Shown here one piece after another: positions 9,331 to 64,000 of a DNA stretch of 64,000 nucleotides (its first letter is position 1; every line of letters starts with the position of its first letter). A program made the translations under genes and the position numbers. The notes under the pieces are model-generated. The model saw nothing but the letters and a program-made list of their open reading frames with translations, had not been told where the DNA came from and searched no databases. Source of the DNA: Liolophura sinensis. Taxonomy: Eukaryota > Mollusca > Polyplacophora > Chitonida > Chitonidae. The stretch covers positions 36,775,501 through 36,839,500 of the forward strand of contig NC_088303.1 in NCBI RefSeq assembly GCF_032854445.1. Reading direction: 5' to 3'.

Positions 9331-9728
9331 TTCTTTTTTTTTCTTCGTTACGCAACACATAACTTTCCGTGTTACGAAACACTCAAAGTTTTTTCGGGAA
9401 CACAAAAACCACGTGGATTTGTTGACCGCGGTGGCTTATGGGTACATGACGTCACAGCCGTCAATCTCCCAAGATGGCATCCCATGAAAGTTTACACTGA
9501 ACTTTGATCATTTTTTTCCCGATGCGATAGATGTAAAATTTGGTGAATATCACACCTTTCCGTCTCTCCGAAGTTCCCGGGAGCTATGGAAAACTACGGT
9601 TGTGATAACAGACCTCTCTGTTGAACGTGTTACTGTACAAGTATTACTTTCGAAGTCCGGCATTAGCGGGGAAAAGTTTGTGTTGTTGTTGTTGGAATTG
9701 AAGTTACTCCGGAGTCCATCGGCAAAAA

Positions 9729-12700
9729 ATGGACTCGCGGATCCGACAGCTGCTTAGTGCTTGTGAGCACGGGGATCTTCAGACGGTAGAGACGTTGTTA
9801 GATCAGGGGCTAGCGGTGGATGTGTGTGATGATGACGATGTGACACCGCTTCAGGTAGCCTGTGCAAACGGGCACGAAAGTGTGGTACGGTTACTGCTGA
9901 TGAGAGGCGCTGCCTTAGACACTACCAACAGTATGGGGTGGACACCGCTCATGCAGGCGGCCAGATACGGCCATACTGCCGCCGTGGCTCTTCTCTTACA
10001 AAACAAAGCTGATATCAATGCCAAAAACAGGCTGTATGCTTCAGCCCTAACCTTAGCTTCTCGGGGTGGCCATATTCAAACTGTTAGACTGCTCCTAGAA
10101 GCTGGCATAGATCATGACAATCTTGGGGCGTCCTGTGAATTTACGCCTCTTCTGGCTGCAGCGCAGCATGGCCATGATGCAGTCCTTCGCTTACTGCTAG
10201 ACAAAGGTGCTGATGTGAACTACAGGACTAGCTCAGGTGCCGTCACACCACTGATGCTAGCAGCTTTGAATGGTCATATGACAACTGCACAGATTTTAAT
10301 TGACAGATGCGGAGATGCAAATGCCATGACAGTTGATGGGAAAACTGCACTGGAAATAGCATCACTGAGAGGAAAGAGAGAAGTGATGGGATATTTGGAC
10401 AGAAAAACTACTAATAAACCTATATTAGGTGTGTTCAGTTTGCTTTATAAATTTATTTATGTGATAAGTTTCCAATTCCCTGCCTAAGGCAGATTTGACC
10501 CCATACCACGTGTGACCAAAAATGTAGCTATTGTGTATGATGTATTGATTTAATTGACTGGTATCTATGCAATATTCAAGAAAACTTCACTTACACAATC
10601 GCAGTCCACATTGTGGAGGGAGAAAACCAGCTCGGCCATCTGCAGGTTGCTGCTAGACCTCCCCACATATGAACAGGCCGGTATGAGCAGAACTGAATTC
10701 AACAGTATTATTTTTAAATGCAACAAATTGTAAAAATATATCACTTAATACTATGCATTATTGCACAGTAGAATGTTCAGCCAGTAAAAAAGCTTGTAGT
10801 AATTATCTGTATAAGTTTAAAATTATAACATTTGAAAAAGAAATACAGATTATGGATTTCAAAAATACCAAGAGCACATTCATCAAAGATGGATTTCATT
10901 GTGCATGATAAACTTTAAAGGCCTGTTTTGTCAGGTTATTTATTAAAAATGTCTGTCTGAAAAGCTACATTGTTTTTTTACCAACAGCACCAGAAGACAT
11001 TAAACCAGATATAATTGAGGCAGCAAAACACAGTAAGTATGATGGTTTGAAGTTGGAATTTTCAGTTTTTAGTTGCTACATGTATGTTAATTGAACGGTC
11101 AGGGAGTGTTTGACAAGTTATATATAGTAGTTACAGCATGTCACAAGGCAAATTAGGATTTACCCTAATTTTTTAACCTTTTCAGCCTCTTATGAAAACA
11201 ATATTTTGAAAGATTCTGAGAGAATTATGAAGTGTAGAGAAATAATATGCACAGAAACATTCACAATTCACAATCTTAAACATGTAAGAGGTTCAGGAAA
11301 TAATACCTGTATGGACTGACTCCTCTAAGAAAAAGAATGGTTGCCAAATAGACAATATACATGGGCTGTAACCATGTTGTGCCTGTGTTACAAAATACAG
11401 TGTATCCTGTGTTAGCACAATGTACATGTATATGGGCCATTTTTAGGAAAAAACATATATGATGTCATCATGAGAAGGGGTTTGGGACATGATGCGTGAG
11501 ATCCATCTAAAGAAAGACTGACAGCAGATGTTTAAGGAAACTACAATGGAGAGTTTGGGCAAAATATTGATCAGTGAAATTCTGTCTATCTTTTGCTTTT
11601 AGTGTAGAATATCCCAAATTGTTACGTCTTAAAAAATATTAGCCTCTATTTGTGCACATTTCATTCAAAATCGGTAATAAAGTTCCTAAAATTTTAAAAC
11701 TTGTTGTTTTACAAACTTTGGAATTACTTTAACACTATCAGTTGTGTAAAGGCAACATTTTTAGCAATACTTGGTTAGTGCACAAAATGTGATTTGATTT
11801 GATTTCATTTGATTAGTGGATATAGATTTTTGGGGGAAAACCTCATCAAGACTGCTCAAAGACCCACTCAAATGCTCATAAAGTAAATTGGCGCAGCCCT
11901 CCTTTCATTACCGTCATATCCATAATCACCTCTATATACATGTATAATTAGTCGAATGTAGTTATGTGGAAAATGTTCACAACCATTTCATTTGTTAACT
12001 TTCCTAAGGTGTGTTATAAGTGGGTCTAATTTGTCAAACTATCATTTGTCAAACAGGCAATGCATTTTTTTTCTGTAGTACATATGTGCACTAATTGGTA
12101 CGTTACTATTACAACCTCTTTTGTGAATTTATACAAATGTATAAATGAATTTATCAGTGGATGTCCAATCAGTTTGTGATTGGTAACCTAATAGACCTTC
12201 AGACATATATGACTATACTTTTCGTTTTGCTTCTCAGGTAATTTGGTGAGAATAAGGGAAATTTTAGCAAGAGATATCAGCCAAAGGGATGCATGTTCTC
12301 CACAAGATGGCGCCACCCCTCTGATGTTTGCTGCCATGACAGGCCGTTTGGACATCGCTCAGCTGTTAATAGAGAATGGTTGTGACATGAACAAGCAGGA
12401 TGTGATCAGTGGCTGGACAGCTCTAATGCAGGCTATATACCATGGGTGAGATCAAGGCCCCCATAAACCTGAAGTTAGGAGTTCGTTGTATGAAATTAGA
12501 GATTTTGCAGTGAATACCCAATTTCTTTACCCAAATATTTCACCCATGTAGCAGCTAATGTTTGAAATATTCTCAGGAATGTGTAAACCAGAAAATGTGT
12601 GATGTTTTATAAAGCTTACCTCTTCAGTGAGCCAAACAAATCATTTTAACTCCGTTTTGACAATATTGATTGTATGCATAGAAGCCAGAAGGTCTAGCTT

Positions 12701-15230
12701 CTGGAAGAAAATAGCTTTCGAGTTCAAAAAGGCGGGGAATTTACAGGATTTTTAATTTTGTGGGATTGTATAGTGCTACAGATAATTTTTTTGTCAGAAG
12801 GATTACTGTACTCTGGACTTTGAAAGAGAGATAGTATGGTACTCCCGACTTTCCAGATATACTGCAGAACACATATTTTTTTCAAATAGTCAACACTTCA
12901 CTATTATTGGTCATCAGTAATACACCTGGAAAGTGTGGAGTTGATCGAGTGAAATGGGATGAAGACATAGGCTTACATGTGCATACATGTACATATCCAT
13001 AGGTCGACATGTACAGAGATTTTTTCCTTTGTAATTAGGACTAGGGTATATAAAGTAGATGTAGACCTACATATAAACTGCCCAAAAATACATTTTAGAA
13101 TAAAGTAGTTATTTCCGCTCTTCTGCAAGAGGAATGAATTTGAATGAAATTAAGACATTTATTTCAATTCAATTGACATGTGTGGGCTTTATTTCAATAA
13201 CTCACTCACTGACATTTTTATTCTCTACTTTTCATTCCTTGTGCTTTGATAGCAGGGGTTGCAGTATTATGTTTTTTCTATGGCAACCTGCCTGATGCAT
13301 GTGCCAGGAACTGCACCCTCGATGATACTTTAACGCTGCAGACTGATGATTCGTGGGGAATTGAAATCATACATTTGGCAGTGATATTAGGATGATTTGT
13401 GCAAAATAGAGCAGAACTTGCAGTATTGTAAGCAAAAAGACCATTTGTAACCCTTTGCTACATCTTCTTTATGGCAAACACTCGAGAATGTCACGGTGAC
13501 AAATATCACCGTAGGCATTCTCCATGGCTTTTGCTGTAGCCCAGAGTGTCTGAAAACTAACACATGGTGGAGAGCGTCGAGCACATGGTTGACTGTAGAG
13601 TTTTACTTTTGATTTTGGCAGGGCTTTCGTAGACTCAGCAAGAGTCAACTTGAAGTTCAGCCATGTTGAGTAGTGTGGACGGGTTCTTCAACTCGGTTGA
13701 ACAACACTCAACACCATCCAACTTGGTTGAATCGGAAATGTGCATGCGTATTTTTTGTCAACAAATTGAGTCAAGTTGAGTGAAAATAGCCATTCAGCGG
13801 GTGTGTAGAAATAACGTGACCGTCTTAAGGCACATGACCAGGGCAAAATGAAGGAACCAACCAAAGGCGAAGTTGAGAATCTGGTCTCGTTGATACAGGA
13901 GTATGAAAAATACCCCTGTGTGTACAACACTCTCTCCAAACATTACAAAGACAGGGACAAAATAAAATCCTTTTGTCTCATGCATTGGAGAGAAAGATGG
14001 AGATTTCACTCCACTATCGAAATTTTGGTAAAAAAAAAAACAGAGCTCAACACATGACGACAGAGTTGGACAATGTTGCATACCTGATTTGTAGTGTGAA
14101 CGGACACTCAACTTACCTCAACAGCATTCAACTTGCTGTTGAGTCAACAAAAGTTGAACGATGTTGGATGGTCGGGATGGGGCTTTAGATGTACACACAA
14201 ATCTTCGGGCGTATACAGTACGCTCTGTTTTAACTCTTCTGTTCAACTTCATAACTATATCCAATGTTTTAACTGTTCTGTTCAACTTCATAACTATATC
14301 CAATGTTTTTTTTTCACCTTACATAACAATGCCATGCCATCCCAAATATAAAACTGATGTGCATTTTGTATATGGTGTGGAAGTAGACGATTTCTTTGTC
14401 AGGTAAACTGCTGCTACTGGTTCCTTATGTAGTCATTGTGTTTATGTTGCAGGAAAAAAAATGTGGCGATGTGTCTTATCCAGTCTGGCGCAGATGTTAC
14501 CGTTCAAGCCAAGAATGGCTGTACAGCATTTGACATGGCATCTTTGATAGGCATGTATCTTTTGATGAAACAATTTTTCATTGGGCTTTCATGAACTCTC
14601 ATAATCCTGCAGGCTTTTTTCGTTCTCTTTGTGGTAGACTTGACATGAGCTAGTCTTGTAGTCATGCATAATAAACATCATATGTGGTCTTTGTTTACAT
14701 GGATAATACTATGAACTTCTATTAGTATGGAAATGAAAATCCTTAAGGTGAGTCGCAATTTTAAATTTGAATGAACTTGTGATGGGTGCAGTCCATCTTT
14801 GGTGAGCTAAGATTAGATTATAGGGCTAAACAGTGTGTGGATAGGTCTTCCAGCAACCTGCGGATGGTCCTGGGTTTCCCCACGCTCTGCTCGGTTTTCT
14901 CCCACCATATTGCTGGCCGCTGTCGTATAAGTGAAAATCCTTAAGGTGAGTCGCAATTTTAAATTTGAATGTGGGTTTCCCCACGCTCTGCTCGGTTTCC
15001 TTCCACCTTATTGCTGGCCGTTGTCATATAAGTGAAATATTCCTGAATGCGGCGTAAAACACCAGTCAGAGAAATAAGTAAATAAGGCTAAACGCTGTTC
15101 ATGTTCCTACAGACGATGACACAGAGCTGTTACGACTGCTAGCAGCGCGTATGCTCCATGTAAACAAAGTGGATAAACAGCGTCCTAAGAGGTCAGGTCG
15201 AAACAGTGGAGCTGTTACTCCTCATAATGG
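9729..15230 (+). CDS. ANKS6: ANKS6 exons 1-5: ankyrin-repeat region
   Basis: Exon 1 (residues 1-233) holds about seven repeats with [55 protein letters not shown] and [11 protein letters not shown] cores. Exon 2 is a 45-nt microexon (residues 234-248) linking to exon 3 ([25 protein letters not shown]). Exon 4 has [17 protein letters not shown], and exon 5 has [11 protein letters not shown] followed by a basic linker. The inserted linker between repeats 7 and 8 matches the vertebrate ANKS6 layout. Confidence 0.93.
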
Positions 15231-18200
15231 GTGAGAGATGAACTTTAACTGCATAGTCCATAAGAGTCTCAGTTTATATTCACAACTCCGTCTGCCCTGC
15301 TTCATTTGTCGATGGCATTAGATGGGGAAAAAGGCTTAATTGTGAATGTAATTTTTTTCTTTAACATGCATTCAAAGTTAATTAAAACAGATTTACAGTA
15401 GAAGATAGCATATAAAAACTTTGTAATGCTTGATACTGGCATTGTAATTGACATACACATATCTATACATCTATGTGTATCTATATCTGTGTGCGTGTAT
15501 ATACGTAATATGCATCATTGGAGCAGTAAATTGAAGGTATAGTACATACATGCATATGGTATAATCAGGTGCAAGTATTTAGGATGAGTAAATGAGCGAT
15601 CAGAGCTGAAGTCCACATTGATCAGCTGTACATGTATTAACCATATCAGAAAATTAGATAGTTATGTCACATTTATAATTAAAGCTACATTTAGAATCTT
15701 TGACTGTGTAAGTACAAGTATGGTACTTTGTTTTCTTTATTTCAGAGAGGATCACCCAAAAAGCGGTTTAAAGGTAAATGAAAATGCATCGAAAAAAAAA
15801 AAAAAATTTTGAATTACCCTCATTGTATCAATACAATATGATATATTCTGTGTTTCATCACGATTGAGGAATATTGCATTACCTACAGTATTTGTGTGGA
15901 ACACTTCTTAAAGTGAACATCAGGTCAGTCACTAAATTTGAATTAATCCCCATCAATGTTTTCCAGAGGCATTGCTAACATGTGTAAAGATGCTTATCAA
16001 TCAGAATAAATGGGAAATGATCATCACAACCTAGACCATCATTTGGTAATGCCATTTTGCCATGTTGGATAGAAAGTGTGATGTCACAAAACTTAGGAGC
16101 TCTCCTGTCTCATCGGTACTAAACAACGTTGATCATTTGCAGTGTACGTGATTGAGCAAGTTTGATAGAGAAAAAATACAAAAAAAAAAACAAAAAATGA
16201 GATATACAACTCAAGAGTTGTATATCTTCAGATTTGTTCCATTTTCAGATGGTGGAAATGTCTGATATCTAATCTAATATCTTGTTCTAATATCTTGAGT
16301 TCAGCATTGACTTCCAGCGGTTCTTTTCATCATAATCCGCCTGCATGGATGTCAGTAGCATCTGGCAGTATTTAAAACTCCTACTTTGTAATATCTAGAT
16401 CTGTGCATCAGGTTTTTGGTCTACTGACATCAGGGAATAAACCGAACATTCAATTTGGAACAGATTCTTCCCTGCTTATGATAGGAAGATGCTTCCTTAA
16501 TAAATCTGGCTTTGCCAAGGAAAAATTATGCAAAGAAATCTTCTAATTCTTAGGCAGTGGTTGACCCGAGTCGTTTGGTTGTCAGCTCACCTGACAAATT
16601 ACTGACGCCTTCTGCCTAACATGTAGGCGTTGTGACATGCGTAAAGCCGATTTCAGTGAAACATAAATGTATCAATGTGTAGTTGGACCAAAATACTTTA
16701 GTACATTACTTACAGGTAAAAATAATCCCCAAAGCTGATTTATTGCACAAGTGTTTGTGAGGAACTGATAACTGTTTTGACATCACAGCCAAATTTCAGT
16801 GCCATTGATTGGCCAAGTCCATAAGGGATTCTACAACATGGCTTCTTGGAGCGAAATGATCGTCAGTGCAATATCCACAATGTTGAATTCTCACTTCTCA
16901 CCTTTTAAAACATTGTAGAGTTTTAAAAATATGTTTCTGTTGCACCAGTGGTCTGCTTCTGTTTTCTGTGTAGTTATAGTGGCAGACTTTATGTACACTT
17001 TAAGATTTCACTTTAAATTGATTGCTTCGTAGTTTTATATGGTACCCTTTTGAGATAAAAAAATTCTTGATTCTTTTTAATGTAACTATAATACCCTATG
17101 GCTGTATTTATTTCGTGCATATCAGGCTTGGTGGAGTCGTATGTCCAATAGATTTAGGAACCTCAAGCTGGGACGGACGTTCAATCTCTCCTCCAATCGT
17201 CTGGCTCCAATGGATTTGCATGGTGTTGGTAGCGATCCAAATGCCACAATTCGGAGCCACTCCAGTTCCATCAAGGTAACATAAAGTCTCCAAATCACAC
17301 TCAAAAATGGACAGTTACACATTTATTTTATATATAACATGTCTTGCTTTGTCACCATTTTGTAAGAATTTAGGGAAAGCAGAAGCATTGTGGTATTTTG
17401 ATATTAGAGGTTAATGGTTAATCTTATGATGAACAATGAATTGACAATAAAGTACTATTGCAGTGTTCATATTGTAAATAAAAAGTCTATTGTTTTTGTG
17501 TTAAAAATTGCACCCTTTTTGGTTATATTTGTTCTTCTTGTTAGCTAAGTCCAGGAGTTAAACATTTTATGCCCTAAACATGCCATGAAAGTAGGAGTTT
17601 TGGATGATTTATGACCCTTTGTAGAGCTCTCCAGCAGATATAAAGGCACCGCTGCGTGCTACCTCCATGCTCAATCTGAACACAGTATCCAGCACTACGT
17701 CGATCACAAGTTATGAAACCATGCTTCTGGAGACGAAGAAAAGCGCTGCCATGTACACGCTGGTAACTCCCTTTGAGATCATTTGCCTGGTTCCTGGAAC
17801 ATCTACTAATCCCATGCTTGCCTCATTGTTTCAACAGCATGATGCAATTAACACTACAAGGTGCTTTGTATGAAGACTACACCTGGAGGTCTATACATTA
17901 GAATATCAGCTGTGCTTGACTGATAGTGGTTTTCTTAGTTTGTGAACATACATATATTTCACCTAAATAGCATTTTTCAGTAGCACATTTTGCTTGATTC
18001 TGGTTAATTCATCCACTGTATAGGGCAACAGTTTTAATGATTAAGTTTGATTAATTCTTATAAGTAATAGGTATGTCTTGGCAACAGAACAGCACCTTTT
18101 TTTTAAGGCCTTTAAGTGCTCCTGAAAATGCAGTTTTACGGTCTGGAGTTCAGGTGAAATACAGTACATTTAATTGATGTAAGCTTAAGATATTATTTAG

Positions 18201-21200
18201 CTCTATGTCAGTGTTGGTGGTGGTGAGTGAAAGTCTGGGTGAAGAAAGCTATGAGCGAACTGAAAGTATCCACCATTAACTAGCCTGCATATTTATGTTT
18301 TACCTAAAACAAAATGTAGCACCATGGCAGAAAGAGCACTGCTTGTTGTTGCCATCTTGGCTACCTTGAGCTTTGAGTATATACATGAAACATGTCAGCA
18401 TGCTGTCCAGTAATGCCTGCTGCCCTTGTTTTACAGTTTATCACATGACATGACATGTGCATTGTAAGAGACTTGAAAAACTGAGTATACAATAATATTT
18501 TAAAAATTAGAAACGTGATATTTTATGTGGCAAGCTGTCTTCAGTCACCCATTGCCAGTATGTGACTCTCAAATTACCTGTACATGTACTAATACTGGCT
18601 GTACAGAATTCCAAAAACACATTCTCTCTCTAGGAAGCCAGGTTCCTGAACTTTTCAATCCTTTTTAGCTCACCTGTATAAAGGTTGTATACAGGCCTGT
18701 ATAATAGGAGGTCATACACTCGGTTGAGTCTAAGGTACATGTATATTGTGTAAATATACATGCTGGAATGGAAGGTTAAGCTTTTTTACCTCCTGTATAA
18801 TGGGCTCTTGTACATGGTTCGAAGGTTCAGCATTTTTGAGCTCCCTAGTCTAAGGTATGGTGTGTAAATGTACATATTACTAGTATGGAAGGTTAAGGTT
18901 TTTTAAGCCCCTGTATAATGGGCACTTATCCAAAGATTTAAGGTTTTTGTCTCTAACATATAATGGTAGAAAATGCTGTTTTGTTTCTTTTCATGTATAT
19001 AGGTCAAACTGACAGAAGGTTGAACTTTATTTTATTGGCTTCATGAATGTTTTTTTTCAAGTTGTTTTGGTTAATAGGCTTTAATGTAAAAATTTATCAT
19101 TTTGATAACTTACTTTATTTTCTGTTGTAAACACATCTTCTCTACAAATCATCCATGCAGCTGTACAATTTCTTGTATGCTATGTCTCTTTTTTTTTTAG
19201 ATTTATAGACCTACTTTTAACCTATTTTGTGGACTTTCATTCTTTGCAGAATTTTTGAAAAATCTGAATATTTCAGTTTTCTCGAATCAATTATATTATG
19301 TGCAGAAGACTTTCATGTAGGGCTGCAGTTTTTTTGCACAGGCCTACCTACATGTGGGAGAACAAGAAGGATATTGATATTACCAGATTTATCATCATTC
19401 AGTCTGTTTTCTCCTGCAAACACAGATATCCATAAGGCTTTCATTTAGGGCTACAGTTTTTGTGCACAGGCCTACCTACATGTGGGAGAACAAGAAGGAT
19501 GTTGATATTACCAGATTTATCATCATTCAGTCTGTTTTCTCCTGTAAACACAGATATCCATAAGGCTTTCATGTAGGGCTACAGTTTTTTGCACAGGCCT
19601 ACCTACAGGTGGGAGAACAAGAGGGATATTGATATTACCAGATTTATCATCATTCAGTCTGTTTTCTCCTGCAAACACAGATATCTATAAGGTTTTTATG
19701 TAGGGCTACAGTTTTTTTGCACAGGCCTACCTACATGTGGGAGAACAAGAGGGATATTGATATTACCAGATTTATCATCATTCAGTCTGTTTTCTCCTGC
19801 AAACACAGATATCTATAAGGCTTTCATGTAGGGCTACAATTTCTTATGCAAACATCTATCTAGAGAAGTTTATTGCCTCTCCAGCTATTTTACCAGATTC
19901 ATGAACTGTCAAAATTTACCTAATTTCTGTATTTGAGTATTCACATTGATTATCTGTGGAAAGCTTTCCACATCTGTATTAACACAAGAGGCGTATGACA
20001 CTGACTGATGTTTATGCCTTCCTAAAGACTGCGACAGAATGTTGACACCATCCAAAGACAGAGCGACTGTTGTCAGCTCAGTATTTGCTTCACCAATCGT
20101 AGGATTTCAGTGGCCACTCGTAGTACATGGATAGCCAGTGGAAGGCTATCACAATTACATTTTTTAGTACCATACCTCCGCATTTGCTCAGGCATGCACA
20201 CAATTACTGTTGCCATCTAAAGTACCTGGCGATTTGCTTATCAAAGATCACGTCAGCAAGTTTGTGCACAAACTCCTTGCAGTGAAGTCTTTTGCCACTG
20301 TATCACTGCAGTCTTTATGGTTATGATAAACAGTCATATTAGGGACATTATAATAATGTTGGCCTTACTTTCTTGATTGAAAGGCAAGATTCTAGCACTA
20401 TCTAACTAGAGAATACTGTCTGTGTATGACAGTGCCATTTACTTTACTCAAGTGTAGAGGTCAGTGTTTGAACATATCACGACACCTGACTTGAACATTA
20501 CACGGTTTTGAACTGGTCAATCAGGTGAGCTAGCAGTACTCTTGAATGCCTTGTTCTTTAATGTTTGTTCAAAACTGCATTCTCATGTCATCTTCTGAAT
20601 GCGTTTTCAAATCTTTAGTGCAGCCATAGGCACAAGTAAATAGTCTTAATTCTGATCGAAATGATTGTCCAATGAGAAACTCAAGAACAAGCTACACACG
20701 AGTCCAAGTCCAAATGACAGTAGAACACATTGTTTTCTCCTGTGATGTTGCAGTGCATGTGTACTTCATATATGATTTATTAGCACTCGTACACCGATAA
20801 TTGTGACGTAAAGAAAAAAAGCAAATGAGTTTACAGTTATGGGCCGTCATGATACATACGGAAAGGAATTTCATGAGTTTTCCCATCTCAAATGTATCTC
20901 ATGTTCAAGCAGTACCTTACAGAACACCTGTTTTTGTACACATCTCTGTTTTATGTATAGTACTTTTATAGCAGAAGAGCACTACGAAAGCTAGGAAGTT
21001 ATTTATGTATTGACAAAGACATATTGCTTGTCAGCCATCTTTGAAGGAAAGTTCTATGATGTTTTACTTATGGCATTTCTAAACTTAATTATGGTGGCTA
21101 ATTTAAGGTGACTGGTAGAAAGACTTGGTTGCTATGTAAAAGTTGTTTAACCGCTCATGTATAACCTGAAATGTGTTATATTATGATCATTTTGAAGTTT

Positions 21201-24200
21201 TAATGCAAACTTTGGCTTGTCTGAAATAACTGATGGAATATTGACATGCAATTGTATGGATATGCAGTGGTCTTGTATTTTGACAAGCTGTGAATTTGGA
21301 TCATTAAAACTGTGCATCAAGAAAACTGATTCATCTGCTTGAATAACCTGTGCAGTTACATAGTGTTCAGTTAGCATATAATGGCTTTGTTTCTAGTCCA
21401 GCCTTTTATTGTAACATGTATTAGGTAGAATATGTATTGTTCGGCTGCATGTAAGTGTTCATATGGCCTGTAGGGAATTATTTACACCAGAGTCTGCACT
21501 ACATTGCTGTTAGAAAGGACAGGTTTTGATCTATATGAATAACAGAGAATTGTATTCTGAAAACTTAATTGGTGCCCCTCTCATTTACAGGGTGAAATTT
21601 CTTGAAATAGGTGCATGGAGTTAGTTAGTCTGTTGTTTCCTGTTCTTAAGTTTGCTTTTACTAACAAATGTATGTACTAACTCCTTCTTTGTGTACTTTG
21701 CATCTTGTAAACCTAAGAGAAGTTCCTTTTGCCTTTTGCATGGAAATACATTAAGGTCAGGTTAATATAATTAGTATTCAATTTGCTTAATTTTCTTCGA
21801 AAACTCAAAACTGACAGTAATGGGTCAAGAGACTGGCAGCTTAATTTTGCAGAATCTTGCACTCCAGCAGTTGAAATCCTATGTAAAATGTACACTAATG
21901 TATAAGTTAACATCGAAAAAGCTCAATTGTACGTTGTGCCCAGTTTTGGATGTGTACGTAATAAAGCTATTAAATCTTACTGGTTTATACATTAGCTACA
22001 ATATTGACTATATGAGATTGACTTTTTAAAATGTAATTTGAGTACATGTAACAAAGTGGGTTAAAGACATGTATTACAACTGTTTGTTTTATGTGGTTTT
22101 TTAGTCACCAATTCTTAATTCTCTTTGTCTGTATGATTTCAGGACATCAACCCACCACATTCTAACATGACAGGAACTGAGACCCTGAAGCCAGTTGTAC
22201 CCCCATTCCTGCCACTGCCAACCTTTGACCTTGACAACAATGAAAGGACACGCATATCATTTGGAGGTCGAAGGGCAGATTTTCTGGATAGTTCATCAAC
22301 CATGGTAAGGCTCATTGATCCTTTCCGGTTTTCTCACACTATAATGCTGACTGCTGTCGTATAAGTGAAATATTCTTGATTGTGGACTAAAACACCAATT
22401 GAATAAATAAATAAATGAAAACAGAGCAGCCTCGCTATAGCATGCCGCTTTGGGGACAGGTTATTGAGCATGTTACAGGCTACCTTGCCCTGTAATGAAA
22501 TGGTTGACCTTGGGATCCAGGATATACAGATGCAGTATATAGGGCTACAATCTATCTAACAGGTCATGATTTTGACATTGATTGAAGTTTTATCGATGCA
22601 AAATCTGTTTTGTCAAATGATTTCTTATTGTTAGTTTATTATGAACGCATGAGATTTTTTGTTACCTAAGGATTCAAGCTTTCCAGCAGCGTCCTATGAG
22701 TCATATCCTTGAAGCTAGCCTTGTAACGTAATCATAGGCCTTAGCTCAGCTACAGAACTCATGTCATACATTCCCACAAGCTGAGTTCTACTAATGTAGT
22801 TTGATCCACTTTATTTTTAAATAAAAAAAAAAAATACAGCACATTTGGTATCTAATTCATTCATGTCTGGTCATATCAGAAGTAACTACTTGAACTTAGA
22901 TGCCTCAGATTTAAAATGGCGGACTGCAGACAACTGTCAACCAGATCACATGACTGCGTTACAGCCACTGCACAGACAAAAAAAAAAAAAGTGATGTGCA
23001 CCTTTTTAATGTATATCATGCTAAATCAGTGTATTAAAAGAAGGAAAGAGGAAAAAAATTAAGAAGCCGTTCTCAAACTTTTGAGTTTGTTCATCTCAAC
23101 TCTCACATGTCAGTAAGCCGTTAAGCCAAATCTCACTCCCTGCAGTTTTACACCTTGCTTTATACCCATTCAGTGATCTAATTAACGTTTTCACCATTTG
23201 CTGAAAGTGTGCAAACATTAATCCCTTTATGAGAAATGCCTGTCACAGTGAGCAAAATGTCTTCCGCATTGCTGACGAGGCCACACACACGCGTAAGAAA
23301 TGCTGCGTGATATATCGAGGCGTCTTATAGCGAGGATAGACTGTAAATAAATAATCTGGCACTGGTTTGACTGAATGGTCATTTGTCAACATTTAACTCA
23401 GCTACTACAGTGACCCTGTCCACGTTTACAAACTGCATGTAACTGGAGGTTATAACAATACATCAAAGTTTCAGTTTGATCATGTTTTCCTTATTAATAT
23501 GTAAGCTACTTCTAACTAAAAGAAATCAAAGTATAGTGTAATGTGTCAGTCAAATTAACGTGTATACAGTGTCTTTTTTATCTTGCCTGTATATAAAGTA
23601 AGGAAAGGTATTGTGAGAGGGGTGAAAATGTCTGTGTCCAGTTAAGCTCTTTTCCTTTTTTTTTTAGCTCCTGTATAATGAGCTCACATACGTGGATTGA
23701 AGGTTAAGCTTTTTTTAACTCCCTAAGCAAAGGTATAGTGTGTAAATACTTGGACGGAAGGTTAAGCGTTTTTATTAGCTCCTGAATATTGGACTCTCAT
23801 ACATGGATTGAAGCTTAGGTTTTTGTTTTTTTGGGCCAAAGTCAAAGGTATGGTGTGTAAATGTACATACTCGGATGGAAGGTTAAGCTTTTTTTATTAG
23901 CTCCTGATTATTGGCCTCTCATACATGGATTAAAGGCTAAGCTTTTTTTTGTGACCTAAGTCGAAGGTTTGGTGTGTAAATGTACATCGGATGAAAGGTT
24001 AAGCTTCTTTAGTAGCTCATGTTTATTGAGCTGTAATACATGGATTAAAGGTCAAGCTTTTTTTATTTCCCAACATACAGCTATAGAAAGTTATTGTTTC
24101 TTTTTTTATTATAGGGGGTATATTGGATATCTGAATTCTAGTATTTTTTTTAGCTGTCCTGTATATAGTACAGGCGTAGCTTATGTTGTACCCTGAGTGT

Positions 24201-24538
24201 TGGCGTTGGCGTCCAATAATAGAGAAAGTAATGTTAAACAAAATGTTAGAGGTGGTATCTTAAACAGGACTGCTGGTATTGGGCTCAGGGGTTGCTCACA
24301 TGTAGGGCTGAATAGCGTGAGGGGAATATTCTGTTGTTGATTTGATGTATGCATTTTAAATACTGTAAATTACTGAATTCCTGACTTAGTGCATTGTGTA
24401 TTTGATTTACTGTTAAACAAAATGTTAGTGTTGGTGCCTTAAAAAGTATTATATCTATTGACGTGAAGTTTTATATGCATACAATTTCAAGGACTACAAT
24501 TTCTTGTATACTTTTCTTTTTTTTCTGTTCTTTATACT

Positions 24539-24570
<32 letters not shown>

Positions 24571-27500
24571 AAAGTTTATTGACAAATTTACCTTTTTCTT
24601 GTAATGAAGAAAACTTTCATGTAGTGCTCCAGTTTTTGTGCACAGGCCTACATGTAGGAGAACAAGAAGAGTATTGATAACCAGGTTCCTCTGGTGATTT
24701 TACCAGATTTGTCATCGCCCCAAGCACTCACTCACTCACTCACTATAAGCCTTTCACGTAGGATTACAGTATCTTATGTAAACACCTATCTGGAGAAGCT
24801 CATTGTTTCTCTAGCCACTTTTATGCTACATTTATGGAGCATTAAATTTTACCTACTATAATTCTTCAACCTTTTTGCATGGTTGCAAGGTGTTTATTCA
24901 AGCATATTCTGAAGGCATTGTGAAGGCCAGAAATTGACCAATCCAACCAGTTGACTCCAAAATCATATTAAAATGTGGCATAAATTGCACTGAAAGTTTG
25001 GGACTTCATTTACTCTGATATACTCATAGTCTGTAAAAAGCTTTCCACATCCATATTAGTACTAGGAACCTGTGACACTGGCTGATGCATGTGTCATCCT
25101 AGACTGTCGCAGAATGTAAACTATGCACACACACAGTGACTGTTGATATCTGAATATTTGCTCAACCAGAGGATTGCTGTGACCACACATATTACATGGA
25201 TAGCCAATGGTGGGTAGAGATTTACATGGAAAAGACCACTACAGCAAGTTGGAGCTCAAAATCCCCACAGGAAAGTTTTTTTACTACCATACCTAAACAA
25301 TTGCCGAGCCATTCACAGAATTGCTGTTTCCAACCATACTGCAGTAGTACACTGATTGCCAAATGCAGTTTATGATTTTCATATAAAGGACCTTTGCTCA
25401 CAATGATGTCTTTTACCATGGCAATGATTTACAAACTCTGTAACATATAAAAATCTTTGTGCATACAATCAACAGTCATATCTCATGATTTTCATGTAAA
25501 GGACCACTGCCCACAATGATGTCTTTTACCACGGCAATGATTTACAAACTCTGTAACAAATAAAAATCTTTGTGCTTACAATAAACAGTCTTTTCTGTAA
25601 TAATTTTGGCCTGTATCATAGCAAGATCTAAGTACTGTCTAATTAGAGAATAATATCTTTGTATAACAGTGTCATTCTAGGTTATTTTGGTGTAGAGGTC
25701 AGTCATTTGAAAGTATCACTTCACTTGAACATGATGCAGGTTTATCATCTCCTCAATCAGGTGAACTACCAGTGATCTCTGAGTGCCTTGTTTTTTCATA
25801 AATCTGAACTTTTATCAGCCACTAAGAATTCACTGTAACAGAAATTAACATACTCTGAAACTAGTAAAGTAAGTGTACCTGTACTTACATGTATGTAATA
25901 AGGAGTCCTGTAGGCAATGATTGACACAAGTTATGTTTTCATCAGACTTTGCAGCATCCAATGAAACTTTTACGCGCTCGTCCATCAGTGTCAACCATTG
26001 GCTCCACACCTGTCACCCCTCTCACCACCCACCGTTATCTCCATGGCAACATTAGTCCTGCCTCTTCAGGAGGATCAAGTGGTGTCAAGCTAGTCAACAA
26101 GTCAACCCCTGGTAAGTGGTTTGGGTGACTAAGCATATAAAATTGTCTTTTGTTTGGTTTTTTCCATCATTTAACCTGTCTGCTGTTCTGTATACATGCA
26201 AGTAAAATCTTGAATAAGGTGTAACACACCAATCAAATAAATATTTGGTTGCTAAAAATGAATTTTGGCCCAGAAATTCAAAATTTTTATTAAAAAAATT
26301 AGTCAATTTAGTTGCTGAAAACTGAGTGTTGAAAAAAATGTGAGAAAATTGAATTCTTAGAGCTAACTTTTCTAGAGCAAACTAAAAACGTTTCTCCAGG
26401 CAATTAGCTGTTATGATATTGTACATGGTCCAATTACCTTTACATAGCCACGTCACATCCACATGAGTTACTGTGTCATTAGATATGGAACAGAGATGGT
26501 GAACAGCATGCAGTGTTTTACTTATTCAGTTAAAAACAAAGGTGGGGGATGGGTGGGTTAAAACACAGTTAATGATTGGTCCCTCATTGCTAAGATCTAG
26601 CTGTGTCACGTTTCAGTAGGCATAATATTGTAAAAGTGTTAAAATTAGCATTCCATTCTGATCAGAACTTAGAATTTCATTCAGTTAGGGAGAAAAAGTA
26701 AGGCAAGCAATCTATCGAAGCAAAGATCTTATTATACATTTCTACTATTTTTTCTGTCAAATAAACAGCCGTACTTTGAAAGAAGCCTAATGTAATGTGC
26801 CTGTCTCTCAAAGTGGACAAGAAATAAATACAGAAGTGAGAAAGTTAAGCTAAACAAAATGCCATTTTCTCATGGGAAATAAAGCAGAAAAAGTATATTT
26901 AAAAGTAAGCTGTAGTATTAAACTAACAGTATTTTCAATCTGTAAAATGGATGTTATCAGAAATGCATAGGTAATTTTACCATACAGTATAAAATTTAGC
27001 TTGTGTAAAGTATAATTCAGCTCAATACTGACACCAAATTGGCCTGTAATTTTTTTTTAACTCAATTTGGGCATCTATGAATCCCTGTCCTAACTGCAAA
27101 TAAAGGGACAAAACTCATTTGGCAGTAATGAAGAAGCATTGAAATAATTCTTCTATCTGGATCCAGATCCAAATGTAGAGGACTAGAGCTTGGCCTATGG
27201 CGCAAAGCCAAACTGTGCCCAATTTTGTCCGTACAGTTGCTGACCTCTCTAGCAGAGGTATTTTAAACCTTTCAAGAAAAAAACATCTTGTGTTTTGTGC
27301 TTTTCAGACCTCACGTCTGACCCCCTGTTTGCTGCTGGCCCTCACACTCCCCACTCCACCCGTCTCTTCATGCCCAGGTAAGTTCACCTCACGTCTGTTC
27401 CCCTGTTTACTGATGTCCCTCAGACTCCACACTCCACAGGTAAGCTCACTTCTCATTTGTCACGTCACGTCATGCCCTGGTACGCTCACCTCACGTTTGT

Positions 27501-30500
27501 TTTGTCTCTTCATGCCAAGGTAAGCTCACCTCACATCTCTTCATGCACACTTCTGGTCAGGTCATGTCTGTCACGTCCCTTCATACCCAGTTCTGTCATG
27601 TCTCTTTATGCCCAGGTACGCTCACCTCATGTCTGTCACGTCTCTTCATGCTAAGGTAAGCTCACTTCACGTCTGTCATGTCTCTTTATGCCCAGGTTCG
27701 CTTACCTCATGTCTGTCATGTCTCTTCATACCCAGGTAAGCTCACTTCACCTTTCTTTTATGGTGTTCACTGTTCACCCTGAACTCCCCACTCCACATGT
27801 TTCTTCGTCAAGATTCAGATGTGTTTACAGGATTTGAAGAGGTGAAATGTGCACCTACAGTGCAGTTTGTGTACACATACTACATATAACATCTTATGCT
27901 TTAGTGTGTTTGTGTAAATATGCATGATTGCACTGGACTCTATGGACAATCAGTGTTCTGACTGAGAAGGTAGGTAACCCTTTCTATATGTGGTGACATC
28001 AATCTACAGACATTGCTTATAGGTGTTGATTTTTTGGGCAGTGAGAGTCTTTTGCAGTTAGGATCTAGGTTGCAAATAGTCCAAAAATAGCTGAGTGTAA
28101 TGTAAACTGAAAGTGTTTTAGACAAGCTTATGAAGTATATGATTTTTGTAGTGTATAATCTCCGTCTTTAATATTGATTTTGGCAAGTTTACATAAGAAT
28201 CAGGGAAGGTGCAGGTAATTTTTGTGTAATCATCTCTTTCTATGACCACTGTTCAACACCTTTTCTAAAAGCTCCCAACACCTTGATACAATCTCTCTGT
28301 TAAACTATCCTAGGCAAAAGGGACCTGCATCCCCTCGTATGCTGTAACTCCTTGGGCACACCTCAGTGTTAAAGACAAAGGAAAGCTCTAAAATGAAGTA
28401 TAGTCAAATGAAAGACCAATGAACACTGAACAGGAAAATGGTTTACTTTCTAAAATTTTTCAACCGAATGAAATGGCTTTAAAGTTTCAGATTTAGCAGT
28501 GGTCTGTAGTTACCCAAAGGTTATCATGTTTTTCATTTTTGTTTTTTTGCTTCAAGTAGTTTGATTCAGGGTCCATTCAGCGAAGGCATTCATAGAACCA
28601 TATGTTTATGAATTTTGGATGATGAAATTTAACTGTCTGTGGCAAAAATGTGATGTAACCTAGCTGGTCCCAGTAGGATTAGAAAAGGCCACTGTAGAAC
28701 CCAAAATTGTTTTTCACTAGGTTGAAACAATTCTAACAAAATAAATTGTACCATTTGTATGCACAGTGTTTAATGGTCTTTTATCTGCCATATACTTCAG
28801 GTTAGTGTTTTCACTGTCGTGTTTAATTCCTTTCTTTGACATGAACATTTGGTTGTCTTTGCAGAAACCGTGGAGTTGCCCCAACGTTCAAAGCCAAATC
28901 CAATACAACGTCACCAAACAGTTCCACAAGCTCCTCTATAACCCCACAGAGATCTTCACAAGGGAGAAGTACATCATCCAAGGAGAGCACAGCTTCCACC
29001 CTCACACCTTCTCCTTCCCCTGTGCCAAAGGTGAAATTCTCCTTCTTTTACCTTATCTAAGGAGAGAGCACAGCTTCCACCCACACACCTTCTCTTTCCC
29101 TGTGCCAAAGGTGAAATTCTGCCTCTTTTACCTTATCTAAGGAGAGCACAGGTTCCACCTTCACACCTTCTCCTTCCCGTGTGCCAAAGGTGAAATTCTC
29201 CTTCTTTTACCTTATCTAAGGAGAGCACAGCTTCCACCCTCACACCTTCTCCTTCCCTGTGCCAAAGGTAAGATCTCCCATGTTTCACCTTATCAAAGGA
29301 GAGCAAACCTCCCTTCCCTGTGCCAGAGGTAAGATCTATACCAGTATATACCAGTAGTGCAATCAGTGCACTCCACAAATGGCTCATGGTACAATCTATG
29401 TGAACCCAAATTAAGCAGCATGACATCCTGTTGTTTCTTTTAGGGTTTTCTTAGTTTCCTTTAATTTCTGGGAATGTTGGGGGAGGGAAGGGGGATATTT
29501 CGAACATCCGGATTCTAGTTTTATTCTGAGTACCCAAGGAGAACACAACTTCCATCCTCACACCTTCTCCTTCCCTGTGCCAAAGGTGAAATTCTCCTTC
29601 TTTTACCTTATCTAAGGAGAACACAGCTTCCACCATCACACCTTCTCCTTCCCCTGTGCCGAAGGTGAAATTCTCCTTCTTTTACCTTATCTAAGGAGAG
29701 CACAGCTTCCACCCTCACACCTTCTCCTTCCCTGTGCCAAAGGTGAAATTCTCCTTTTACCTTATCTAAGGAGAGCACAGCTTCCACCCTCACACCTTCT
29801 CTTTCCCCTGTGCCAAAGGTGAAATTCTCCTTTTACCTTATCTAAGGAGAGCACAGCTTCCACCCTCACACCTTCTCCTTCCCTGTGCCAAAGGTGAAAT
29901 TCTCCTTTTACCTTATCTAAGGAGAGAGCACAGCTTCCACCTTCACACCTTCTCCTTCCCCTGTGCCAAAGGTGAAATTCTCCTTCTTTTACCTTATCTA
30001 AAGAGAGCACAGCTTCCACCCTCACACCTTCTCCTTCCCTGTGCCAAATGTGAAATTCTCCTTTTACCTTATCTAAGGAGAGCACAGCTTCCACCCTCAC
30101 ACCTTCTCTTTCCCCTGTGCCAAAGGTGAAATTCTCGTTTTACCTTATCCAAGGAGAACACAGCTTCCACCCTCACACCTTCTCCTTCCCCTGTGCCGAA
30201 GGTGCAATTCTCCTTCTTTTACCTTATCTAAGGAGAGCACAGCTTCCACCCTCACACCTTCTCCTTCCCCTGTGCCGAAGGTGAAATTCTCCTTCTTTTA
30301 CCTTATCTAAGGAGAGCACAGCTTCCACCCTCACACCTTCTCTTTCCCCTGTGCCAAAGGTGAAATTCTCCTTCTTTTACCTTATCTAAGGAGAGCACAG
30401 CTTCCACCCTCACACCTTCTCCTTCCCTGTGCCAAAGGTAAGATCTCCCATGTTTTACCTTATCAAAGGAGAGCAAACCTCCCTTCCCTGTGCCAGAGGT

Positions 30501-33500
30501 AAGATCTATACCAGTATATACCAGTAGTGCAATCAATGCACGCCACAAATGGCCCATGGTACAATCTATGTGAACCCAAATTAAGCAGCATGACATCCTG
30601 TCGTTTCTTTTAGGGTTTTCTTAGTTTCCTTTAATTTCTGGGAATGTTGGGGGAGGGAAGGGGGGTATTTCGAACATCCGGATTCTAGTTTTATTCTGAG
30701 TACCCAAGGAGAACACAACTTCCACCCTCACACCTTCTCCTTCCCTGTGCCAAAGGTGAAATTCTCCTTCTTTTACCTTATCTAAGGAGAACACAGCTTC
30801 CACCATCACACCTTCTCCTTCCCCTGTGCCAAAGGAAAGATCTCCTCTGTTTAACCTGATCCAAGGAGAGTCCATCTTTCACCCTCACACTGTGAGGTGA
30901 ACCCTGTTGTACCTGATTGAGTTGCTTCTTTTCTCTCATTTCAGTTAACCCCTTTTTCCACATAATGTTTTTCTAAGTTTAATATAGGCTGGAATATGCA
31001 GTAGTATAAAATATTATTTAAAAAAAAGCGAAAGACCAGATAAATGGAAAGTTTATTAATTTAATTAATAATTTTTAATGTTTTGTTATTTTTTTTTTGT
31101 TGTGTACAGAATATCTGGTATAAAAATAATCATGTTTTTCTCCCAGTAGACTACATGTTAATGTTTTTGTTTTTTCTACAGAATGGTAACAAGATGGAAT
31201 CTGCAGATGAAAACACAGAATCTCATGACGGTATGTACAAGTACATGTATGAGGGGTGTTTGCTTTTAGGATGAACCCTGTCTGTAGGAATAAAGCACTA
31301 GATGTAACCTTTGACAGATCCACAAAAGTTAAGAGATAAATAAGAAGATTTGTGCAAGGTAATTTTAGAAATCGTTGTATAGGTACAGTACATGTATGTG
31401 CCATTGTGCAGTTCTGATAATGGAAGATCGAACAGAATGGTCAACAGCTGGTTGTGTTACAAAATGTACCCTGATCAGTTTTCATTCAGTCATTAAGCCC
31501 CAGAATAATCATATAGGCTACAAAAATTATTTGGTTTTCATCCACAGATGAACTAGCGGACATCCTCAAGAAACTATCCTTGGAGAAATACAACCCAATC
31601 TTTGAAGAGCAAGAGGTAAGTTTAATTACTTTCATAGAAAAGCTGATAAGTTTAAATTCATTTAAATTCATATGATAATTTGAGGAGGTGTTTTCCAAAT
31701 TTGTAAGGTGTTTTCCAAATTTGGAACGTACAATCAAATGACAACAGCAATGGTATTTTAGTTGAATGTCACCTCCTGCTGTGCAGTTATAAATTTCTGT
31801 TAAATCATAGTGTGTTAATGAGTCTTTGTGCTGTAAACTCCAGCTGTGTTTGTCCTGTCTTCATTCCACATTGAAGCCATGATTCCAAGTTGCCATGAGA
31901 AAAGTCTTCACACAGATCCTAGAAAACCTGGAAAGTACTTGATTTTTTTTTTTGTGGAAATTCTAGGCCTTAAAAGTGCTTGAAAGTGAGTGTTTTTGAG
32001 TAAAGGTGCTTCAATTTCAGGAAGCTTAGTGAAGTAAGTGTCACAGATGTGAAAAAATAAAACAGTATAAAGTCTTTCACATTTTATCACATTTGTGCCT
32101 TGTTAACTTTCCAAGCGGTCTTCTGTGTCCTCTCCAGATCGCATGTTGGTTGACTCATATCTTACAGCATGTTAGTATTACTGTTCCAGGGTTGCGTAAC
32201 TAATTCGAATTTGCAGCCCTGGAGTATGGATACTAATAGCATAGCAGCATGCGTTACCATCAGGACTGGTACTTCCACCAACTCGGCTGTGTGTGATACT
32301 GGATTATGTTGACAATTCTTAGGGCCTGTACATGAAAAAATGCCTGGTAAATGAGTTGCCATTAATGCCAGAATTAATGGCCACTCATAGGTTGAAGAGG
32401 GGCACAGATAAATACAAGGCATACCTTACGAACTAGAGTTTAACCTGTTAGAATATAGATGATAGGGGATGGAACTCTTGACAAACGGCCCAACTTGCCA
32501 GGACCAAAATTGCGGGAGCGTACATAATCTTTTATTGCGAGAAGTTAGAGGACACATTCATTACTGGATGTGGTTACATCATGTCCATCTGGGACTGGGG
32601 GCCTGTGTGTGAGGATGACGTGCAACATATAGTGCTTTGATTTTAAATTCTGATAGGTGCATTAAGTCCTGGAATTGTCCTGGAATTTATTTTCTTATCA
32701 CCTGTGCAAACCCTGTGAGTCTGAATGCGAGCTTTATGTTTCACTCGACAGGTTGACATGGAAGCATTCCTGACTTTGACGGACACAGACTTGACGGAGC
32801 TGGGTATTGGCAGTTTGGACTCTCGTAAGCAAATACTGACTGCTATCACCGAGCTCAACTCTGGAAAGGTAATGTGTTACATTTCTGCTGAACAGTGAAC
32901 TATGGCAACAAGGGTAAAAATTTGGACCGAAAACGTGAACAGACAAATAAAATTTATAACTTGTGCAAAGAAGGTCAACTTAACCTTTATTTAATACATT
33001 ATTATTGAACAACTTCCATGTGCTGCATATGTTTCATATTGCATGTCGCCGTTAGCAACTTTCATCTTGTATGTTGGCACTACCAACATCACATTCAGTG
33101 GTGTCCCTCTATAACACTGCGTCATTTCTCAGGATATATTCTTGCGCTATTCACAGAAAATTGCAACAAGTTTTTTTTGGTCAAATTTTCATTTTTGGCA
33201 AAAAAAGTGAAAAATTATTGAGTACATGGTTAAACACCAGTGAAGTAAATGAATAAATACTATTGCAAGTTATGTGAGTTTTGATGTTGTTTGGCTACTG
33301 TAGGGTAGAGAGAGACAACACTTCCATGATACTATGACATCATTCCAGTCCACCCTCACTTCCAAGTTACCTCTCACCCCAGGTAAGTCTGACATCCCTC
33401 GTCAGCTGTTTCTGTGATGAGGGAGCAGGAAGTTGTCTATTGGTTAAAAATGTGCTTGTCTTTAATGCCATGAGGTTAGAGTTTAATTCTTGCATTGGGT

Positions 33501-41470: not shown

Positions 41471-63399
<21,929 letters not shown>

Positions 63400-63775: not shown

Positions 63776-64000
63776 TATTGGCTAAGCAGTCCAGAATGCT
63801 CATTGGCCAAGCAGTCCAGAATGCTCATTGGCCAAGCAGTCCAGAATGCTCATTGGCCAAGCAGTCCAGAATGCTCATTGGCCAAACAGTCCAGAATGCT
63901 CATTGGCCAAGCAGTCCAGAATGCTCATTGGCCAAGCAGTCCAGAATGCTCATTGGCCAAACAGTCCAGAATGCTCATTGGCCAAGCAGCCCAGAATGCT
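63776..64000. repeat. 25-bp minisatellite, nine units to the window edge
   Basis: Unit CATTGGCCAAGCAGTCCAGA+ATGCT, repeated exactly nine times in register and running off the right edge. Units 5 and 8 have GCCAAACAG in place of GCCAAGCAG, giving a three-unit (75-bp) sub-period. Each full unit has the palindrome TTGGCCAA. Confidence 0.97.

What the first reader, a model, noticed from the sequence alone, without database searches (positions are those of the whole stretch)
28983..30890. Array of about 20 exon-like copies of the ANKS6 exon 12 tail, each with its own splice-site-like edges
Seen: the last 48 nt of exon 12 plus the first ~30 nt of the intron are repeated about 20 times. The intronic part ends in a pyrimidine-rich stretch and AG (TTTTACCTTATCTAAG), so each 48-nt block sits between an acceptor-like and a donor-like site. 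About eight blocks are exactly 48 nt, encoding [16 protein letters not shown] or variants in phase 0, the phase at which exon 12 joins exon 13. Inference: the array could supply alternative in-frame cassettes that lengthen the Ser/Thr/Pro linker before the SAM domain, or act as splicing decoys that retain intron 12. The 47-, 49- and 50-nt blocks would shift frame.
Basis: partly seen in the sequence, partly recalled or inferred. Interest (0 to 1): 0.85.

Follow-up and report, generated by a model that had tools for sequence, protein, structure and literature searches.

The report
Splice-site minisatellite ("mirage") in chiton ANKS6
A short stretch at the edge of a protein-coding exon has been copied about twenty times in tandem inside the neighbouring intron of a chiton gene, giving a row of exon look-alikes that most likely does nothing; the same kind of structure has been described before in lancelets.

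Summary
Seventeen of 19 have an AG before and a GT after. Best reading: a "mirage", a minisatellite whose unit spans an exon-intron boundary, as described in amphioxus.

The unit is best read as 61 nt of exon tail plus 18 nt of intron start. The acceptor-like edge is then an accident of the junction: pyrimidine-rich intron start fused to exonic ...TCCAAG. Nine of 19 blocks are out of frame; distinct changes are 10 nonsynonymous to 1 synonymous. A dispersed ~180-bp repeat interrupts the array, and a stretch of at least 440 bp including it recurs 1170 bp downstream.

The genome is the chiton assembly published as Liolophura japonica, since corrected to L. sinensis: a mollusc, not an amphioxus. 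Two more mirages lie in the window and one on another contig. Exon edges are not enriched for local copies.

Cassette or decoy functions are not supported but not excluded: no transcripts could be examined. New member of a known kind, in a phylum where my limited searches of one open-access library found none reported.

The parts
29031..29048 (+). start of the intron (GTGAAATTCTCCTTCTTT), the intronic part of the unit, pyrimidine-rich
29062..29328 (+). first sub-array, 4 blocks: 29062-29110 (49 nt), 29142-29189 (48), 29221-29267 (47, strong donor GTAAGATCT 10.4), 29299-29328 (30, donor 10.1)
29346..29525 (.). dispersed ~180-bp repeat interrupting the array (limits approximate); 38 of 40 scored genome matches lie elsewhere, at 74-81% identity
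29539..30498 (+). second sub-array of 13 blocks: 29539-29585, 29617-29664, 29696-29742, 29771-29818, 29847-29893, 29922-29971, 30003-30049, 30078-30125, 30154-30201, 30233-30280, 30312-30359, 30391-30437, 30469-30498
30516..30695 (.). second copy of the dispersed repeat, carried by the large duplication (offset 1170; 98.4% identity of 29221-29660 with 30391-30830)
30709..30890 (+). last units: 30709-30755 (47), 30787-30834 (48, no GT after it), and the decayed unit from 30866
31182..31230 (+). next exon ([16 protein letters not shown]), acceptor PWM 11.5, stronger than any array acceptor (at most 7.0)
27308..27377 (+). preceding ANKS6 exon ([22 protein letters not shown]), donor PWM 12.7
27378..27750 (+). 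second donor-side mirage in the preceding intron: seven places that match the exon-end/donor edge at 28-34 of 40 positions (period ~40 bp); the stretch from 27386 matches 51 of the 70 nt of the exon
56283..56678 (+). acceptor-side mirage in the downstream EGF gene: genuine exon 56562-56678, copies of its 5' edge at 56331 and 56449 (the latter without AG) and a fragment near 56002 next to a 200-N gap
31548..32868 (+). SAM-domain exons 31548-31615 and 32752-32868 that identify the gene as ANKS6

Best explanation
The array is a 'mirage', a minisatellite whose unit straddles an exon-intron boundary. Shown by sequence: a segment of about 79 bp (61 nt of exon tail plus the first 18 nt of the intron) is repeated in tandem behind the exon; a dispersed ~180-bp repeat interrupts the array, and a stretch that includes it recurs with an offset of 1170 bp. 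Inferred: it began with one local tandem duplication and grew, often several units at a time, by unequal exchange or replication slippage. Each unit inherits the real donor site by descent. The acceptor-like edge is a by-product of the junction: pyrimidine-rich intron start, then exonic TACATCATCCAAG, which changed to TACCTTATCTAAG. Inferred: the whole array is removed as part of the intron, from the genuine donor at 29030/29031 to the strong acceptor at 31181/31182, and has no selected function. It may leak low levels of aberrant transcripts and is likely variable in copy number.
For: Unit dissection and frame counts. Exon upstream of the 48-nt block matches the unit at 10 of 13 positions and at 0 of the 7 beyond; outside the array region only 10 of 61,968 13-mers, or 3 of 1,108 that end in AAG, match as well. 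The birth junction alone already scores 5.3 as an acceptor; of 5,568 simulated duplications across this donor, 29% give an acceptor of 5 or more and 12% one of 6.9 or more within 25 nt. Changes in the block are 10 N to 1 S. Large duplication with offset 1170 at 98.4%, units identical in pairs (U04 = U17, U08 = U10), carried repeat. The same kind of structure occurs three more times: 27378-27750, 56283-56678, and L061 on C4. Local copies are not commoner at exon edges than elsewhere: 3 of 49 edges against 302 of 2000 positions; 0 of 33 against 176 of 1056; 1 of 45 against 181 of 1110. Published amphioxus mirages have the same anatomy and were reported not to interfere with regular splicing.
Against: Four array donors (GTAAGATCT, 10.1-10.4) outscore the genuine one (6.5) and twelve equal it, so complete silence in splicing is not self-evident. 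Nine blocks are in frame with both AG and GT. Over 18 units the 48-nt block has fewer distinct changes (11 in 48 columns) than the intron-like 18 columns (14) or the 13 before the block (9), which constraint on the block could also give; among the 12 core units this difference goes (9 in 48 against 5 in 18 and 2 in 13). The N/S test rests on 11 changes (p=0.19) and cannot exclude weak selection. No transcript was examined. The exonic origin of the acceptor side rests on a 13-nt match.
Confidence: 0.86

Rival explanations
1. The blocks are alternative cassette exons: single blocks are spliced between exon 12 and exon 13 and lengthen the Ser/Thr/Pro linker before the SAM domain.
For: Nine of 19 blocks are in frame, free of stops and flanked by AG and GT; acceptors near 7 and donors of 6.5-10.4 lie in the range of inferred real sites in the window. 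Over 18 units the block has changed less than its flanks.
Against: Nine of 19 blocks are out of frame; 10 N to 1 S changes; most neighbouring blocks are 28-31 nt apart; the acceptor of the next exon (11.5) is much stronger; the two blocks with the 10.4 donor are 47 nt and out of frame; the lower change of the block is not seen among the 12 core units.
Confidence: 0.06
2. The array is a selected splicing decoy that slows or retains the intron, or lowers ANKS6 output by feeding transcripts to decay.
For: Up to 18 donor-like sites compete with a moderate genuine donor, and four are stronger. An exon 12 extended to any of them meets a stop after nine codons and loses the SAM domain.
Against: Nothing points to selection. 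The same kind of array occurs in unrelated genes and local copies are no commoner at exon edges than elsewhere. One unit has lost its AG and another its GT.
Confidence: 0.06
3. Assembly artefact: a shorter array inflated by misassembly or by haplotype stacking.
For: The assembly rests on 14x HiFi data and has 1,110 gaps, and the 1170-bp offset copies are 98.4% alike.
Against: Units differ from each other in register, and the two large copies differ at several sites. The array (1.9 kb) is shorter than the mean HiFi read, 8.3 kb. Unit number could still be off.
Confidence: 0.02

Closest known systems
Amphioxus 'mirages' (globin genes BflGb6 and BflGb9, Adh3, troponin C, PGBD5); PMC3087553 and PMC3902484, passages read
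   Same: Minisatellite-like tandem duplications spanning an exon-intron boundary, on the donor or the acceptor side; many units with AG/GT signals; units homogenised within the cluster, with cluster boundaries excluded from it.
   Different: Mollusc, not cephalochordate. About 20 units here against 3 and 6 in the two BflGb6 haplotypes. Interrupted by a dispersed repeat and partly duplicated as a large stretch. Length instability between individuals and absence of aberrant splicing were not testable here.
Human internal tandem repeats at exon-intron boundaries in segmental duplications; PMC2812944, passages read
   Same: Minisatellite units at exon-intron boundaries that can supply cryptic splice sites.
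   Different: There the repeats are supported by transcripts, vary between recent paralogs and sometimes form new introns; here there is one gene and no transcript evidence.
Intron gain by tandem genomic duplication (e.g. the potato RdRp gene, PMC4974935; only title and start of abstract seen, in the listing)
   Same: Tandem copies can bring extra donor and acceptor signals (recalled).
   Different: Here the copies lie inside an existing intron; no new intron is shown.

Membership tests
mirage (minisatellite at an exon-intron boundary) | tandem repeat unit contains both exon and intron sequence of one boundary | tested here: met
   61 nt exon plus 18 nt intron per unit
mirage (minisatellite at an exon-intron boundary) | array adjoins the genuine exon and continues into the intron | tested here: met
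   first copy of the block 31 nt behind the genuine donor
mirage (minisatellite at an exon-intron boundary) | many but not all units carry AG/GT signals | tested here: met
   17 of 19 complete blocks carry both; one lacks AG, one lacks GT
mirage (minisatellite at an exon-intron boundary) | homogenised inside, divergent at the edges of the cluster | tested here: met
   inner units up to 100% alike; last unit 45% to the genuine copy
mirage (minisatellite at an exon-intron boundary) | regular splicing not disturbed | not testable with these tools
   no transcripts held
mirage (minisatellite at an exon-intron boundary) | length instability between haplotypes or individuals | not testable with these tools
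   one assembly only
alternative cassette exons | reading frame kept across the blocks | tested here: not met
   9 of 19 blocks out of frame
alternative cassette exons | protein sequence constrained | tested here: inconclusive
   10 N to 1 S, p=0.19, no sign of constraint; block less changed than flanks over 18 units but not among 12 core units
ANKS6 gene | ankyrin repeats followed by a SAM domain closest to ANKS6 | tested here: met
   Ank families in 9702-10484 and 12213-12446; SAM_1 E=1.5e-11; best PDB match ANKS6 SAM 4nl9_C E=2e-24

The most novel reading that the evidence does not exclude
A genuine splice donor evolves in concert with some twenty intronic copies. The array serves as a reservoir from which exchange can rewrite the exon's tail and donor, and from which single blocks are sometimes spliced in, so that the ANKS6 linker differs in length between individuals.
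Probability: 0.07. Interest if true: 0.7.

Novelty: new member of a known kind. Interest (0 to 1): 0.36.

Why it matters
Mirages have been discussed as possibly a general phenomenon in cephalochordates and proposed as a source of new introns (PMC3087553). Finding four in a chiton suggests that they can arise wherever introns are rich in local duplications. With about 20 near-identical donors behind one exon, the locus is a natural test of how the spliceosome picks the genuine donor among equal or stronger copies.

Tried and rejected
Amphioxus as the source was my first guess, because mirages are known there. It was rejected: an eight-unit haemocyanin of a family that I recall as molluscan lies on C8, and contig C9 has exactly the published N50 length of the chiton assembly, 37,343,639, with 632 scaffolds in both. 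The total differs slightly: 609,464,459 here against 609,495,693 published.

A mobile satellite was considered: the exon query gave no match outside this locus (best candidates only), while the spacer holds a dispersed repeat. An RNA element or tRNA: no Rfam family at gathering score and no tRNA (bacterial settings) in the window. A Pfam scan of two forward frames of 9700-24691 with stops read as X gave nothing; single open frames were used instead. Sequence words of the SINE-like repeat found no paper. Enrichment of local copies at exon edges was tested and not found. Which donor type (GTGAAATTC or GTAAGATCT) is ancestral was left open: there is no outgroup.

Rows left out of counts. One search used 18 of 21 units (U05, U18, U21 left out). 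One search used 25 exons picked by hand from PWM and open frames, so its PWM ranges are not independent of the choice; the first exon's acceptor and some exons (near 14.45 kb and the LamG-like ones) were left out. One search used 30 of 81 listed myosin places, and 33 of 60 edges passed PWM 4. One search used 30 of 150 listed LDLa places, and 45 of 60 edges passed. Local copies were sought within 2.5 kb and 1.5 kb, ungapped, at 26 of 40.
Full report
What is there. The stretch 28983-30890 holds the tail of one exon and a tandem array made from it. Tandem Repeats Finder reports period 79 in three pieces, and 307 (about four units) in the middle one. By anchoring on the block edges I find 21 units: the genuine tail 28983-29030, 19 complete blocks in the intron and one decayed unit at 30866. 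Block lengths are 48 nt (8 of 19), 47 (7), 49 (1), 50 (1) and 30 (2). Starts are 75-81 bp apart, except two gaps of 240. Eighteen of 19 blocks follow AG and 18 of 19 precede GT; 17 have both. This is far beyond chance.

Gene and organism. Exons 31548-31615 and 32752-32868 joined give a SAM domain whose best solved relative is that of ANKS6 (4nl9_C, E=2e-24; SAM_1). Ankyrin repeats lie in open frames at 9702-10484 and 12213-12446. The window is C9:36775501-36839500 of a genome of 609,464,459 bases in 632 contigs. A haemocyanin with eight units of PF14830, a family I recall as molluscan, lies on C8; the family rings in none of the 14 control genomes, but those that names are prokaryotes, so this control says little. 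The firm evidence is that contig C9 is 37,343,639 long, exactly the scaffold N50 of the chiton assembly of PMC11068029, which also has 632 scaffolds (passages read). The authors have since corrected the species to Liolophura sinensis (PMC12441733, whole text read). The window lies about 0.5 Mb from the end of that scaffold.

Anatomy of the unit. The 13 nt before the block in the genuine exon (TACATCATCCAAG) match the unit's TACCTTATCTAAG at 10 of 13 positions, and at 0 of the 7 before that. Outside the array region 10 of 61,968 13-mers match as well, or 3 of 1,108 of those that end in AAG. So the unit is best read as 61 nt of exon and 18 nt of intron. The acceptor-like edge then needs no design: the intron happens to start with a pyrimidine-rich stretch, which after duplication comes to lie before the exonic ...CCAAG. 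That junction alone scores 5.3 by my weight matrix, against -1.3 for the same AG inside the genuine exon. In 5,568 simulated duplications across this donor, 29% give an acceptor of at least 5 and 12% one of at least 6.9 within 25 nt of the junction.

History. Inner units are up to identical (U08 = U10), U04 equals U17, and the last unit is only 45% like the genuine copy. Positions 29221-29660 recur 1170 bp downstream at 98.4%. The two spacers (29329-29538 and its copy) hold a repeat of about 180 bp that is dispersed in the genome: 40 scored matches of 178 candidates, 38 of them elsewhere at 74-81%. So the dispersed repeat was in the array before the large duplication copied both. This is ordinary minisatellite growth.

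Function. The reading frame of exon 12 is fixed by the SAM frame through exon 13, though a second frame of it is open too. Ten of 19 blocks have a length divisible by three, one of which lacks its GT, so nine could in principle serve as in-frame cassettes. Against use: nine of 19 are out of frame; 11 distinct changes among 18 units are 10 nonsynonymous and 1 synonymous, with 70% nonsynonymous expected (p=0.19); gaps between adjacent blocks are 28-31 nt, apart from the two 210-nt spacers, and an extended exon 12 meets a stop after nine codons. Results that cut the other way: four donors score 10.1-10.4 against 6.5 for the genuine donor, and twelve equal it, so leakage into the array is plausible. 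Over 18 units the block carries 11 distinct changes in 48 columns against 14 in the 18 intron-like columns and 9 in the 13 before the block; this would fit constraint, but it stems from the units at the edges of the sub-arrays and is gone among the 12 core units (9 in 48, 5 in 18, 2 in 13). No transcript could be consulted.

Is it special? Two more boundary arrays lie in the window. In the preceding ANKS6 intron, seven places match the edge of exon 27308-27377 at 28-34 of 40 positions. In the EGF gene, the acceptor edge of exon 56562-56678 is repeated upstream, beside a 200-N gap. A survey of other genes found none at 33 edges of myosin-head exons and one at 45 edges of LDLa exons: locus L061 on C4, with four copies of its acceptor edge (one without AG) and a partial one upstream of the exon. 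Away from exon edges local copies are more frequent: 302 of 2000, 176 of 1056 and 181 of 1110 positions, against 3 of 49, 0 of 33 and 1 of 45 edges; for the window alone the difference is not significant (p=0.10). Introns of this genome are rich in local repeats, and some of these catch an exon edge. Nothing suggests that edges are targeted.

What is known. Such structures are called mirages. They were described in amphioxus Adh3, globin, troponin C and PGBD5 genes (PMC3087553 and PMC3902484, passages read), where the authors saw no disturbance of regular splicing; in the globin paper they were proposed as a source of new introns. Human internal tandem repeats at exon-intron boundaries can form novel introns (PMC2812944, passages read). 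Seven searches of the open-access library bear on mirages; I saw none reported in a mollusc in their listings, but only searches used a term for molluscs, and most subscription papers are not held. The original Adh3 paper was not read.

Verdict. A real, large and well-preserved mirage, new for this phylum as far as these limited searches go, most likely neutral. The cassette and decoy ideas remain possible at low probability and can be settled with existing RNA-seq.

Noticed in passing
window 27378-27750: A second donor-side mirage in the ANKS6 intron just before; the stretch from 27386 matches 51 of the 70 nt of the exon.
   Followed up: yes
window 56002-56678: An acceptor-side mirage in an EGF-domain gene, next to a 200-N assembly gap, so the array may be incompletely assembled.
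   Followed up: partly
L061:1210-1500: An acceptor-side mirage (four copies and a partial one) before an LDLa exon on contig C4.
   Followed up: yes
window, 14 places between 7384 and 63219: Fourteen copies of a SINE-like repeat on both strands; it reminded me of SINEs of molluscs, from memory only.
   Followed up: partly
G000:C99 (L011-L014): COX1 recurs seven times, about every 15.5 kb, on one contig and once on C632, with TGA inside the frame: probably a mitochondrial genome assembled as a concatemer.
   Followed up: no
window 63777-64000: A 25-bp tandem repeat, 9 copies at 96%, running to the window's end.
   Followed up: no
window 19306-19850: A 128-bp tandem repeat, 4.3 copies at 94%, in the ANKS6 region; I recognised no exon in the 1 kb read around it.
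   Followed up: no
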